Source: Patescibacteria group bacterium
GTDB lineage: Bacteria > Patescibacteriota > Gracilibacteria > UM-FILTER-43-11
Length of the DNA stretch: 41,686 nt
Direction: 5' to 3'
Assembly (NCBI GenBank): GCA_018825145.1
Contig: JAHJFD010000055.1
Coordinates: 1-41,686 of the forward strand
Shown here: positions 25,652 to 30,139 of the stretch, piece by piece
Layout of the letters: each line of letters opens with the position of its first letter
Position numbering within the stretch: the first letter of the stretch is position 1
Position numbers and translations under genes: made by a program
Notes under the pieces: model-generated
Database searches by the model: none
What the model saw: only the letters and a program-made list of their open reading frames with translations
What the model was told of the DNA's origin: nothing

Positions 25652-25687
25652 TTGATAGTTGATAGTTGACAGTAAACTATAAACTAT
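25652..25687. repeat. Five contiguous heptads forming a large inverted repeat (operator candidate)
   Basis: TTGATAG-TTGATAG-TTGACAG is followed directly by TAAACTA-TAAACTA (25652-25686). Read as an inverted repeat, ATAGTTGATAGTT (25655-25667) and AACTATAAACTAT (25675-25687) match at 12 of 13 positions around a 7-bp centre. It covers the -35 box and most of the spacer of the promoter of the HTH-phosphoribosyltransferase gene. Confidence 0.65.
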
Positions 25688-25695
25688 GCTAAAAT
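25666..25695 (+). promoter_or_regulatory. Promoter of the HTH-phosphoribosyltransferase gene
   Basis: A perfect TTGACA (25666-25671) and an extended -10, TGCTAAAAT with hexamer TAAAAT (25690-25695), are 18 bp apart. The predicted transcription start coincides with the ATG at 25702, so the mRNA is probably leaderless. Confidence 0.7.
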
Positions 25696-25701
25696 TTAAA
25701 C

Positions 25702-26685
25702 ATGACAACAGACACAGCAGAAAAAATCATAAAATATATTGGCGAAAAAGGGCAAACCACTGCCAAAGATTTGAAAAACTACCTTGGAATTAGTAGTCAG
25801 GCGCTATTTAAACAATTCGCTAAACTGCTCGAAAACAAAAAAATTTACAAAGTAGGCAGACCGCCTAAAGTCTTCTACTATTTGAATAAGGCACTGCCAA
25901 AAGCGAATATCGAGATTGAAGATATAGATGAAAAAACCAGAAAGATTCTTGAAGACTCATTCTTGAATATTACGCCCAAGGGGGAGCGGAAACAGGGTGT
26001 AGAAGGTTTTGCTCTTTGGTGTCAAAAAACCAGACAGCCACTTGAAAAAACCGCACGAGAATATGTAAGTACCCTGGAAAAATATAATGCCTTCAAAAAG
26101 AATGGGGTTATTGATGGCATTAAAAAATTTAGAAGCTCTTTTCCACAAGTATTCTTGGATCATATTTTCTATCTTGATTTCTACAGTATTGAGCGATTTG
26201 GCAAAACAAAATTGGGCCAAATGCTTTTGTATGCAAAGCAAAGCCAAAACAAAGTGCTGATAAAGGAATTGATATCAGATATTGAGCCTCAAATACAACT
26301 ATTAATTAAGGAATATGACATAGATGCTGTTGGCTTTATACCACCAACTGTTAAAAGAGAGATTCAGTTTATGAAAGAACTGGAGAACAATTCCTTACTT
26401 AGCATACCAAAAATCAAAATAGTTAAGGTCAAAACAGAAATCGCAGTTCCGCAAAAAACATTAAGTAAAATTGAAGATCGCATTGAAAACGCGCGCTCAA
26501 CTATTATTGTCGACGAGAACCAAAAATATAAGAATATATTGCTTGTGGATGATGCAGTTGGTTCCGGCGCCACATTGAATGAAACTGCTTCACAAATCAA
26601 AGATAAGGATATATGCCGAGGTAAAATCATTGGACTCGCCATAACAGGCAGCTTTAAAGGCTTTGATGTTATAAGCGAAGTTTAA
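25702..26685 (+). CDS. Winged-helix DNA-binding domain fused to a ComF-like phosphoribosyltransferase
   Basis: Residues 1-60 look like a winged helix (AEKIIKYIGEKGQTTAKDL, then LGISSQALFKQFAKLLENKKIYKVGRP). The C-terminal half is a type I phosphoribosyltransferase: NILLVDDAVGSGATLNET is the PRPP-binding loop. Before it, a VPQKTLSKIEDRIENA stretch resembles the QxxLSxxxRxxN segment of ComF proteins. The middle (about 75-190) is unassigned and charged. Regulators made of HTH plus PRTase exist (PurR of Bacillus is the classic case), so a repressor that senses PRPP or a nucleotide is plausible, but this combination with a ComF-like domain is not one I can name. It is AT-rich compared with its neighbours. 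It starts at a leaderless ATG under a palindromic promoter. Confidence 0.7.
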   Translation: MTTDTAEKIIKYIGEKGQTTAKDLKNYLGISSQALFKQFAKLLENKKIYKVGRPPKVFYYLNKALPKANIEIEDIDEKTRKILEDSFLNITPKGERKQGVEGFALWCQKTRQPLEKTAREYVSTLEKYNAFKKNGVIDGIKKFRSSFPQVFLDHIFYLDFYSIERFGKTKLGQMLLYAKQSQNKVLIKELISDIEPQIQLLIKEYDIDAVGFIPPTVKREIQFMKELENNSLLSIPKIKIVKVKTEIAVPQKTLSKIEDRIENARSTIIVDENQKYKNILLVDDAVGSGATLNETASQIKDKDICRGKIIGLAITGSFKGFDVISEV

Positions 26686-26766
26686 ATCACTAATTCATGT
26701 ATTGAAAGGCGAACCAGATAAGTTCTTATACTTCAATAAATGTTGTAGGTGCTAATCTCAAGCGTG

Positions 26767-27342
26767 ATGCTAGAGCAAGTAATAAAATTTGTTAATAAAT
26801 CTTTTGAAAAATGTGCAACAGGAAAAAGTGTTGCTCATTTCGAAAGCACGCTCCATTGGATTAAGGAACTAAGACCGGAAGCTGATGAGCCCATACTAAT
26901 CGCAGCATATGCACACGATATACAGAGGGCTTTTAGAGAAACAAATACTGAAAATACATTCAAAAATATCGAATTGAATGATCCAGATTTGTTAAAACAT
27001 CATCAGCAAGAAGGCTCTAAGATAATTTGTAATTTTTTGGAAAGTAAGGGTTACGATAAGAAAGGCATAAAAAGAATCGGCAATATGATCGCCCACCATG
27101 AAGAAGGGGGTGATGAGGAGTCAGATTTAATAAAAGATGCTGATAGTATCAGTTATTTTTATACGAATGCCAATAAACATGTTACAGAAACAGTAAAAAC
27201 TCTTGGCAAAGAAAAAATCCGTAACAAAATCGATTGGATGTATAACCGAATTACATCTGAAAAGGCAAAAAAAATTGCAAAACCAAAATATCTTGAAACG
27301 GTCAACAAATTGAAAACATTTAAAACGGTTATGCTAAAATGA
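26767..27342 (+). CDS. HD-domain metal-dependent phosphohydrolase
   Basis: The HD pattern is complete: HFESTLHWI supplies the first His, AAYAHDIQRAF the HD pair, HHQQEGSKII and MIAHHEEGG further His ligands, and DADSISYF the last Asp. Such domains hydrolyse nucleotides or other phosphate esters. The start is taken at the ATG (191 residues); a GTG six codons upstream is also open. The gene follows the HTH-PRTase gene after 81 bases and is equally AT-rich, so the two may form a nucleotide-related pair acquired together (inference). The basic, Lys-rich C-terminus is unassigned. Confidence 0.75.
   Translation: MLEQVIKFVNKSFEKCATGKSVAHFESTLHWIKELRPEADEPILIAAYAHDIQRAFRETNTENTFKNIELNDPDLLKHHQQEGSKIICNFLESKGYDKKGIKRIGNMIAHHEEGGDEESDLIKDADSISYFYTNANKHVTETVKTLGKEKIRNKIDWMYNRITSEKAKKIAKPKYLETVNKLKTFKTVMLK
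27310..27340 (+). promoter_or_regulatory. Possible promoter of the P-type ATPase gene inside the HD gene end
   Basis: TTGAAA (27310-27315) and the extended -10 TGCTAAAAT (27332-27340) are 19 bp apart and overlap the last codons of the HD gene. The leader would be about 15 bases. This would allow the ATPase gene to be expressed independently of the HD gene. Confidence 0.4.
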
Positions 27343-27361
27343 GGCAAATAAAGAAAAAATT

Positions 27362-30139
27362 ATGCCGACTAAAAATCCAAAACAATATTTTTACCAATTT
27401 TCGGCTGAAGAGGCCATTCAGAAGCTCAGAACGGACGGTAAAAAAGGCCTGACTCAGTCTGAAGCAGAAAAGCGGCTTACGCAATACGGTCACAATGAAC
27501 TCAAAGAAGGCAAACGAAGACCCATGATCTTTCGTTTCTTTGACCAGTTCAAGGATTTGCTAATCATCGTTTTAATCGTTGCCGCGTTTTTGGCCTACTA
27601 TTTAGGTGATTTTAGGGGCGGCACCATTCTTCTGGTAATCGTCTTTGTGAATTCGGTGATCGGTTTTTATCAGGAGTACAAAGCCGAAAAAATTCTTGAA
27701 TCCCTGAAGCGCATCATTCAGGCCAAAGCCATCGTGATCCGGGAGGGGAAAAGGCTGGAAGTAGATCAGTTCAGCCTGGTTCCCGGTGACCTGATTTACC
27801 TGGAAGAGGGCGGCTCTGTTCCGGCGGATGTTCGCCTGACCGAAACCACCAATTTTAGTACCAACGACTTCGTTCTTACGGGCGAGTCAGTGCCTCAGGA
27901 AAAGTGGGCTGATCTGATCATCGACCACGAAACCACCCTGACCAATCAGGACAACTCGGTTTTTATGGGTTTGACGGTAGCCAAAGGAAACGCTTACGGT
28001 GTGGTTTACGGAACGGGCATGGACACGGCCATCGGACGCATTGCCAAGCAGACCGAAAGCATTCATCACGATCTGTCGCCCCTTCAGCGTGAAATCAATA
28101 TTCTGGCGAAGTCCCTCACCAAAATCGCGGGAGTCATCGCTCTTTCCCTGTTTATCATCAACTTCTTTTTGAACGTTGGTGAGGCCGAAAGCATACGTCT
28201 GAGTATTCAGCTTTCTATCCTTTTTGCCATCAGTGTGGCGGCGGCTTGCGTACCTCAGGGGCTTCCTGCCCAAATTTCGGTAGCCCTCAGTTTGGGGGTG
28301 GGCCGGCTCGCCAAAAAAAAGGCCGTGGTCAAAAAACTGTCCTCCGTCGAAACATTGGGTTCCACCACCGTCATCTGTTCCGATAAAACCGGCACCCTGA
28401 CCAAAAACGAGATGACCATTACTCACTGTGTCATTCTAGACTGCCAGACCAAAAAAGGATGTGAAGCCAGAGTGTTTGAAACGACCGGAGAAGGCTATGA
28501 ACCGAAAGGCTCAGTGCTGGAGAACGGCAAAAAAATCGACAAAAAAACTTTTGAATTTCTTAAGCAATTTTTTGAAGATGGTTTTTTGGCCAGCAACGGG
28601 CGCGTGGAACCACCCGATAAAAATCATCGCGGCTGGTATGCCATCGGTGATCCCACCGAGGCCGCCTTCACTCCGCTGGCCATGAAGGTGGGGCTAAAAC
28701 CGGCCGACCTCGATAAGCGCTTTCCGCTTTTTCATGAACTTCCTTTCGATTCCGACCGCAAGCGCATGACCATTATCCGCCAGCACAAAGGTAAGCACAT
28801 CGGTTACATGAAAGGGGCCATCGAAAGCATTTTAACGGTATGCGACAAGGCGAAAATCGGAGGAGAAATTGTGCCTTTAACGGATGGAATGCGAAAGTCC
28901 ATCATGAAACAGGGGGACCATTTCAGCGCTCAGGCGCTTAGGGTCATTGCCCTGGCTTACCGGGATTTTCCAAAATCCGAAAAGACTTTCAGTATCAAAA
29001 AAACCGAGAAAAACTTCATCTTCTCCGGTTTTGTTACCATGATCGACCCGCCCCGCCTGGGCGTAAAGGAGGCAATCGAGCGGGTATATAAAGGAGGCAT
29101 GCGCGTGATGATGATTACGGGCGATAACGAAATCACGGCCAAGGCCATAGCTGAGCGCATTGGTATGAAGCACGATGACGGGGAGCTTCCGGTTTATAAC
29201 GGCGACCAGATTAAACGGTTGTCCGACCAAAAGCTGAAAAAAATTCTGAAGGCCCGCTCCGTCATCTTCTCGCGCGTGTCACCCCAAGACAAGTACCGGC
29301 TTGTAACCCTGCTCAAACAAATGGGCGAAGTGGTGGCTGTGACCGGTGACGGAGTAAATGACACGCTCAGCCTGAAGCGTTCCGACATCGGTGTGGCTAT
29401 GGGTAAGATGGGTTCCGAAGTCGCCAAAGAAGCCTCCGAAATCGTTCTGCTCGACGATAACTTCAGCACCCTCACCCGCGCCATCGGTGAAGGCAGAACA
29501 ATTTTTGCGAACTTAAGACATACCATTCTTTCATCCATTACCTCCAACAACGGCGAGCTGACCTGCGTGCTGTTGGGCTTTATCGGTGTTGCCTTTGGTC
29601 TTCCCGCGCCAATTACGGCGGTTCAGATTCTGGCTATCGACCTGGTTGGTGAAATGTTGCCCCTCACTGCCATGACTTTCGATCCGCCGGAGAAGACATT
29701 GATGGAAAAACCGCCCCGTGATCTAAAAGACCATATTATCAACCGCCAGAGTTATCTGAACCTGATCTTCTATGGTTTCTGGATGGGGGCCGCCGGATTC
29801 TTTAGTTTCTTTATGGTTTACAAGTTCGGTTCCGGCACCGTCGAATCCGCCCGCGCTGCCGCTTACACCGGCATCATTTTCTGCCAGTTTATGAACATTC
29901 TAAGCCGAAGGTCAGAGCGGACGATCTTCACCCGTCATCTGTTTACCAATCCTCAGCTCTGGGGCTCTTTTGTAATTTCACTCATTGTCATTTCACTTCT
30001 GATTTACATTCCTTCCCTCTCAATTTGGTTCGGATTTGGCAGTTTGACAACAGGCGATCTGACCTACCCTCTCATAGGCGCTGTCGCGTTTTTGATACTT
30101 CACGAGACCGGTAAGCTATTTAATTTTTTGCGGCCATAG
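27362..30139 (+). CDS. P2-type cation-transporting ATPase
   Basis: A 925-residue P-type pump with an N-terminal cation-ATPase domain, actuator motif TGES (173-176), phosphorylation motif DKTGTLT (Asp341), nucleotide-binding KGA (484-486), TGDNEITAK, and hinge GDGVND (662-667), then six C-terminal membrane segments. It belongs to the Ca2+/Na+,K+ group. Several ion-site residues known from SERCA differ: the TM4 motif PEGLP reads PQGLP (Gln299), and the TM6 NLVTD reads DLVGE (Asp760-Glu764), while the TM5 N-x-G-E is kept (Asn729, Glu732). The transported ion therefore cannot be assigned by analogy. It starts 19 bases after the HD gene, but its composition matches the bulk of the window. Confidence 0.93.
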   Translation: MPTKNPKQYFYQFSAEEAIQKLRTDGKKGLTQSEAEKRLTQYGHNELKEGKRRPMIFRFFDQFKDLLIIVLIVAAFLAYYLGDFRGGTILLVIVFVNSVIGFYQEYKAEKILESLKRIIQAKAIVIREGKRLEVDQFSLVPGDLIYLEEGGSVPADVRLTETTNFSTNDFVLTGESVPQEKWADLIIDHETTLTNQDNSVFMGLTVAKGNAYGVVYGTGMDTAIGRIAKQTESIHHDLSPLQREINILAKSLTKIAGVIALSLFIINFFLNVGEAESIRLSIQLSILFAISVAAACVPQGLPAQISVALSLGVGRLAKKKAVVKKLSSVETLGSTTVICSDKTGTLTKNEMTITHCVILDCQTKKGCEARVFETTGEGYEPKGSVLENGKKIDKKTFEFLKQFFEDGFLASNGRVEPPDKNHRGWYAIGDPTEAAFTPLAMKVGLKPADLDKRFPLFHELPFDSDRKRMTIIRQHKGKHIGYMKGAIESILTVCDKAKIGGEIVPLTDGMRKSIMKQGDHFSAQALRVIALAYRDFPKSEKTFSIKKTEKNFIFSGFVTMIDPPRLGVKEAIERVYKGGMRVMMITGDNEITAKAIAERIGMKHDDGELPVYNGDQIKRLSDQKLKKILKARSVIFSRVSPQDKYRLVTLLKQMGEVVAVTGDGVNDTLSLKRSDIGVAMGKMGSEVAKEASEIVLLDDNFSTLTRAIGEGRTIFANLRHTILSSITSNNGELTCVLLGFIGVAFGLPAPITAVQILAIDLVGEMLPLTAMTFDPPEKTLMEKPPRDLKDHIINRQSYLNLIFYGFWMGAAGFFSFFMVYKFGSGTVESARAAAYTGIIFCQFMNILSRRSERTIFTRHLFTNPQLWGSFVISLIVISLLIYIPSLSIWFGFGSLTTGDLTYPLIGAVAFLILHETGKLFNFLRP

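What the first reader, a model, noticed from the sequence alone, without database searches (positions are those of the whole stretch)
25652..26685. HTH-ComF-like phosphoribosyltransferase fusion under a self-complementary promoter
The protein joins a winged helix to a PRTase with an intact PRPP loop (LLVDDAVGSGAT). Its promoter is covered by a 13+13 bp inverted repeat (12 of 13 matching), so the protein may repress its own leaderless mRNA and use PRPP or a nucleotide as signal. PurR is the known HTH-PRTase precedent, but the PRTase here looks ComF-like, a group tied to DNA uptake.
Basis: partly seen in the sequence, partly recalled or inferred. Interest (0 to 1): 0.6.

Follow-up and report, generated by a model that had tools for sequence, protein, structure and literature searches.

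The report
Self-repressing PRTase gene in Patescibacteria
A small stand-alone bacterial gene makes a protein that joins a DNA-binding domain to a nucleotide-type enzyme domain and almost certainly shuts off its own promoter; across many related bacteria the DNA switch and the residues that read it have changed together, so the recognition rules can be read from sequence, while the job of the enzyme part is still open.

Summary
ORF 25702-26685 has a winged-helix domain (aa 1-63) and a ComF-like phosphoribosyltransferase domain with an intact PRPP loop. Its sigma-70-like, leaderless promoter sits inside an inverted repeat (25655-25687). The repeat is an operator: four 7-bp-spaced half-sites (GTT-4-GTT-7-AAC-4-AAC). 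That geometry recurs just upstream of 30 of 31 orthologues in the fixed-geometry clade. The bases differ between loci and covary with recognition-helix residues 33 and 36 (R33 with GTTC; Q33/F36 with GTTG; Q33/H36 with GTTT; R33/R36 with GTTCC). A rule written down beforehand then held in 12 of 12 new loci. Two proteins with 92% identical enzyme parts carry different helices together with the matching different operators. In its own genome the operator occurs only once, so the protein appears to repress only itself. The gene is patchy, has no conserved neighbours, and was found only in Patescibacteria. Its enzyme domain matches the toxin domain of PsyrT/RqlH and ShosT (PsyrT profile: 43 of 43 members), but neither their helicase nor their DprA partner is present. 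Self-repression is strongly supported. Whether the enzyme domain is a conflict effector or a PRPP/nucleotide sensor is not decided. A DNA-uptake role has no support.

The parts
25655..25687 (.). Inverted repeat / operator, 16+1+16 nt, containing the conserved 27-bp core 25658-25684 with four half-sites: GTT 25658-25660, GTT 25665-25667, AAC 25675-25677, AAC 25682-25684
   Evidence: same geometry upstream of 30 of 31 close orthologues; covaries with the recognition helix; unique in the genome at up to 3 mismatches
25666..25671 (+). -35 hexamer TTGACA in the centre of the operator
   Evidence: 11 of 12 consensus matches for the promoter as a whole
25690..25695 (+). -10 hexamer TAAAAT (preceded by TG), 6 nt before the ATG: leaderless transcript expected
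25702..26685 (+). CDS of the 327-aa wHTH-PRTase protein
   Evidence: full-length homologues
25702..25890 (+). Winged helix-turn-helix domain (aa 1-63)
   Evidence: Predicted structure, structural matches Z about 10, Pfam HTH_11/MarR_2 in homologues
25795..25833 (+). Recognition helix aa 32-44; residues 33 (25798-25800) and 36 (25807-25809) covary with operator bases 4 and 5, residue 32 with base 6
26098..26682 (+). ComF/PsyrT/ShosT-like PRTase domain (aa about 133-327), with conserved C-terminal GSFKGFDVISEV
26548..26574 (+). PRPP loop DDAVGSGAT (aa 283-291)
   Evidence: D283, D284, G287, S288, G289 invariant in 43 sequences

Best explanation
A solitary, self-repressing gene. Step 1 (strongly supported by inference, not shown at the bench): the protein's winged helices, probably up to four in a dimer of dimers, bind the four heptamer half-sites over its own -35/-10 region and block transcription of its own leaderless mRNA. 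Only this one site exists in the genome, so the repression is private. Step 2 (inferred): the specificity module (promoter, operator and recognition helix) diversifies and can be exchanged as a block, so copies in one lineage or cell do not cross-repress. Step 3 (inferred, about 0.5): the ComF/PsyrT/ShosT-type PRTase domain is the working part, an active PRPP-using enzyme held at low level by self-repression and acting as a stress, toxin or defence-type effector. It would be released when the repressor is displaced or titrated, or when its PRTase ligand changes DNA binding.
For: Self-repression: fixed-geometry operator over the promoter in 30 of 31 close orthologues; promoter inside the operator. 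Operator base 4 has its highest mutual information with helix residue 33 (excess 0.91 bit, z 20) and then 36; base 5 with residue 36 (0.68). The best PRTase-domain column, a control for shared ancestry, reaches only 0.22-0.25. R33 x C4: 21/0/1/24, Fisher 3e-12, with 10 and 11 changes on a PRTase-only tree. The rule noted in advance held in 12 of 12 new loci and 26 of 27 discovery loci, 0 of 20000 shuffles each. L116 versus L118: 92% identical after aa 65, but operator and helix swapped, with a breakpoint near nt 150. One operator in the genome. Effector reading: PsyrT profile hits 43 of 43 members, best 7e-19, with the signal in the PRTase part; ShosT-PRPP structure Z 9.8; all PRTase motif residues invariant. 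In RqlH the toxicity maps to this domain and needs the PRPP-site aspartate (PMC4670107). Patchy presence, second copies and decayed copies; no conserved operon partner.
Against: No experiment. No linked antitoxin or DprA gene, unlike PsyrTA, ShosTA and RqlHI; DprA is a single housekeeping gene elsewhere. [quoted passage not shown] Neighbours are mostly housekeeping, not a defence island. The window operator's right arm reads GTTTA rather than the GTTGA of its left arm, and the right-arm outer half-site obeys the rule in 32 of 38 loci. On well-supported branches only 4 independent switches can be counted (4 of 4 agree; sign test p 0.125).
Confidence: 0.5

Rival explanations
1. PurR-like sensor: the PRTase domain is a ligand pocket (PRPP, ppGpp or a nucleotide) that sets DNA binding, and the protein is a metabolic autoregulator rather than an effector.
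For: Same wHTH + PRTase architecture as Bacillus PurR, whose PRT domain lacks activity and binds PRPP/(p)ppGpp (PMC8789054). Self-repression fits any regulator. The PRPP loop is intact.
Against: No second operator in the genome, so no regulon. No metabolic neighbours recur. Presence is patchy, not tied to a pathway. Similarity to PurR is marginal (E 0.3) against 1e-13 to 1e-14 for the PsyrT PRTase part. The ComF-type residues R219, K242, Q251, K252, R260 and N263 are invariant as well.
Confidence: 0.33
2. ComFC-like DNA-uptake factor whose expression is self-limited.
For: NCBIfam comF E 5e-5 (far below cut-off); ComF of H. pylori is the top Foldseek hit (E 7e-4) and Z 10.7.
Against: No competence neighbours recur. 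True ComF with a cysteine motif exists separately, e.g. L068:14214-14927, 5 kb from a homologue. Patchy distribution.
Confidence: 0.07
3. The repeats are ordinary dispersed repeats (as in short tandem heptamer repeats of many genomes) and their place upstream is incidental.
For: 7-bp periodicity resembles such repeats (from memory, a lead only).
Against: The pattern is absent elsewhere in the genome, sits over the promoter in orthologue after orthologue, and covaries with the recognition helix.
Confidence: 0.02

Closest known systems
PsyrT / RqlH (RecQ-like helicase with C-terminal PRTase; partner PsyrA/RqlI, DprA-like)
   Same: PRTase domain of the same type: PADLOC PsyrT profile matches all 43 members and the isolated PRTase part
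   Different: No helicase, an N-terminal wHTH that recognises its own promoter, no linked DprA-like partner
ShosT (PRTase toxin of ShosTA)
   Same: PRTase fold; structure with PRPP-Mg (8zvc) Z 9.8 over 159 residues; PADLOC ShosT profile hits 33 of 43
   Different: No adjacent DprA antitoxin; extra wHTH and self-operator
Bacillus PurR
   Same: wHTH plus PRTase-type domain in one repressor
   Different: PurR uses two 14-bp PurBoxes with a CGAA centre and a purine regulon (PMC8789054); here one private 27-bp operator of four heptamers and no regulon
ComF / ComFC
   Same: PRTase fold and ComF-like residues
   Different: wHTH instead of the cysteine motif; no competence context

Membership tests
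PsyrT/RqlH | PRTase domain of the PsyrT type | tested here: met
   43 of 43 members, best E 7e-19; isolated domain 1e-11 to 1e-14 in three members
PsyrT/RqlH | N-terminal RecQ-like helicase | tested here: not met
   327-aa protein starts with a wHTH; the match begins at PsyrT position 365
PsyrT/RqlH and ShosTA | Adjacent DprA-like partner gene | tested here: not met
   No recurrent neighbour in about 45 loci, none DprA-like among the families listed for 102 neighbours; DprA is a separate single gene
ShosT | PRTase fold with PRPP site | tested here: met
   8zvc Z 9.8, rmsd 3.5, 159 aligned; motif invariant
PsyrT/RqlH and ShosTA | Toxic when unrestrained | not testable with these tools
   Needs expression in a laboratory strain
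Bacillus PurR | wHTH followed by a PRTase-type domain | tested here: met
Bacillus PurR | Two 14-bp PurBoxes (CGAA centre) and a multi-gene purine regulon | tested here: not met
   Operator is 27 bp, four half-sites, no CGAA, once in the genome
Bacillus PurR | PRPP-controlled DNA binding | not testable with these tools
   Needs gel shift with PRPP
ComF/ComFC | ComF-type PRTase | tested here: inconclusive
   TIGR00201 E 5e-5 but 23 bits against a cut-off of 234; top fold match
ComF/ComFC | N-terminal paired-cysteine (zinc) motif | tested here: not met
   Absent from the 327-aa sequence; present in the separate ComF of L068
GfcR (haloarchaeal HTH-PRTase regulator) | NCBIfam NF045507 | tested here: inconclusive
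   12.7 bits against a cut-off of 300, E 0.064

The most novel reading that the evidence does not exclude
A one-gene conflict or selfish element of Patescibacteria in which a PRTase effector and its own repressor are fused, and whose repressor/operator specificity diversifies by point changes and block swaps, as phage immunity regions do, so that copies do not silence one another. In four genomes with two identifiable copies (G122, G377, G782, G820) the copies have different helices and operators.
Probability: 0.35. Interest if true: 0.75.

Novelty: new variant of a known kind. Interest (0 to 1): 0.55.

Why it matters
It gives a family in which a protein-DNA recognition code can be read directly from natural covariation, including a natural swap between close relatives, in organisms where genetics is hard. 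It also offers a stripped-down version of the PsyrT/ShosT/RqlH PRTase, whose chemistry is unknown as far as the papers read here say, without helicase or DprA partner, which could make that open question easier to test in a laboratory strain.

Tried and rejected
No relatives by tblastn in 72,556 plasmids or 50,697 phages, nor in viral contigs with single sequence or alignment. The downstream HD/DUF4202 gene as a partner: rejected, no relative in 144 other class genomes at E 1e-10 and not next to other homologues. RNA hairpin reading: rejected (the operator is upstream of the inferred start). Family-level horizontal transfer by AU test: not shown (p 0.245 for holding the four same-family copies together), so transfer rests on patchiness only. 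The 27-bp geometry was not found in most of the recoded (TGA-sense) outer clade L049-L062 (L051 and L052 score high), nor in L025 and L126-L134, which carry other repeat types. A 617-aa hit near one homologue looked like a helicase fusion but is a separate ordinary ComF gene. The wHTH signal on its own is generic (MarR, ArsR, Z-alpha all match), so it does not identify a family. The PDB profile search did not find ShosT by sequence. One search was a stray query with a made-up sequence and is not used. Literature: no paper on this fusion in Patescibacteria was found in the library, which holds only open-licence papers.

Full report
Setting. The window is contig C66 of a 1.16-Mb, 93% complete Patescibacteria genome; its nearest named relative carrying the gene is a Candidatus Peregrinibacteria MAG (L006, 66% identity). 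The gene lies between a divergent lepA-type GTPase gene and an HD-domain gene, followed by a P-type ATPase. The stretch has lower G+C (0.38 against about 0.46 around it).

Protein. Pfam matches are below cut-off for the window protein (PRTase-CE, Pribosyltran, HTH_11) but clear in homologues. AlphaFold2 on a four-sequence alignment gives mean pLDDT 72, with a winged helix at 1-63 and a PRTase fold at about 133-327. Structural matches are wHTH domains at Z about 10 and, for the PRTase part, ComF (7p0h, Z 10.7, 162 residues) and ShosT with PRPP-Mg (8zvc, Z 9.8). In 43 homologues the PRPP loop residues and R219, K242, Q251, K252, R260 and N263 are invariant, as is E326 of the C-terminal GSFKGFDVISEV.

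Distribution. Matches with E below 1e-60 occur in 17 of 380 genomes sampled across the phylum besides the window's own and matches with E below 1e-30 in 23 of 384 genomes of another class. Four of 18 genomes of the same family have it, the window's own included; the two others of the genus do not. Second copies (G122, G377, G782, G820) and decayed copies (G147, G065) occur. Nothing was found in plasmid, phage or viral-contig collections. Flanking genes share almost nothing between about 45 loci; only a DUF4143/AAA_14 ATPase recurs (5 of 102 neighbours).

Operator. The repeat 25655-25687 covers the -35 box and spacer of TTGACA-18-TAAAAT, whose -10 box ends 6 nt before the ATG. Reading the upstream regions of orthologues showed one geometry, GTT(4)GTT(7)AAC(4)AAC, 27 bp, i.e. 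two 7-bp-spaced half-sites in each arm. Of 31 close orthologues, 25 were reached by 0 of 300 shuffles, 5 by 1 to 5, and one (L015) by 91. The sequence itself varies: GTTGA, GTTTA, GTTCA, GTTCC, GTATA and TTGC half-sites.

Recognition code. Listing helix and operator side by side suggested that residues 33 and 36 set bases 4 and 5. I wrote the rule down before reading 15 further loci: 12 fell under it and all 12 agreed, with 0 of 20000 shuffles doing so; in the discovery set 26 of 27 agree, the exception being L044. For one of the 12 (L120) the automatic call was out of phase and the half-site was read by eye as GTTCCTA. Across 46 loci the two strongest columns of the whole protein for base 4 are residues 33 and 36 (excess mutual information 0.91 and 0.76 bit), for base 5 residue 36 (0.68), for base 6 residue 32 (0.48); the best PRTase-domain columns for those bases reach 0.22-0.25. 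Since the PRTase domain largely shares the genealogy, shared ancestry does not explain this. On a tree from PRTase columns alone, R33 changes at least 10 times and C4 at least 11 times; on starred branches 4 independent contrasts all go the same way, too few for significance on their own.

A natural swap. L116 and L118 are 92% identical after residue 65 (239 of 261) but 62% before it (40 of 65). DNA identity is about 60% or less upstream and up to about nt 150, then about 90%. One has Q33/F36 with GTTGACA, the other R33/R36 with GTTCCTA. So operator and recognition helix travel as one block.

What this establishes. Binding of the protein to its own promoter is inferred with high confidence (about 0.9) though not shown at the bench; repression follows from the site covering the promoter. 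The operator is unique in the genome even with 3 mismatches, so there is no sign of a regulon, which separates it from PurR.

What the PRTase does. The best family match is the PRTase part of PsyrT. In RqlH, a relative of that kind, genotoxicity depends on the PRTase site, although the domain alone was not sufficient, and a DprA-like partner restrains it (PMC4670107). ComF-like PRTases of mobile elements have been proposed as conflict proteins (PMC5512222), and a DprA-PRTase pair protects against phages (PMC9122126). Patchiness, solitary position, second copies with different specificity and an intact active site fit an effector held down by its own repressor. A sensor role as in PurR (PMC8789054) remains a serious rival, since an intact PRPP site fits both. 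I put the effector reading at about 0.5, the sensor at about 0.33, DNA uptake under 0.1.

Limits. The geometry holds for one clade; outer clades carry other repeats, for example tandem 14-bp palindromes GGTGAATATTCACC with a KT.YKHL helix. Tree support in the crowded part is weak. Start codons of homologues were set by rule, and operators were called as the best-scoring 27-mer within 120 nt. The structure model rests on four sequences.

Noticed in passing
L002:1501-2517 (own genome, C44) and L028:931-1689 (-): A similar N-terminal winged helix followed by other parts: in L002 an ATPase (HATPase_c) plus STAS-like DUF4325; in L028 an unidentified C-terminal part with a separate DUF4325 gene next to it. 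Both promoters also carry 7-bp-spaced GTTTA/TTTAC-type repeats, so the self-operator scheme may extend to other effector domains.
   Followed up: partly
26749-27342: HD-domain/DUF4202 gene 64 nt downstream on the same strand, no relative at E 1e-10 in 144 other genomes of the class; probably a separately acquired neighbour.
   Followed up: partly
L105, L126, L127, L128, L133, L134, L025 upstream regions: A second clade with recognition helix KT.YKHL (or similar) and an operator of two tandem 14-bp palindromes such as GGTGAATATTCACC, also four 7-bp half-sites but in alternating orientation.
   Followed up: partly
L129, L130, L131: A third, longer type (about 391 aa) with promoter repeats of the CTATAGTA..TACTATAG kind and C-terminus GVFDVISEA or GVFDIISEA.
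   Followed up: no
L044, L046-L062: Homologues in genomes that read TGA as a sense codon (open only under code 25) keep the gene, with divergent operators in most of the outer ones.
   Followed up: partly
26001-28000: Local G+C dip to 0.383 over the PRTase and HD genes, against about 0.46 around them.
   Followed up: no
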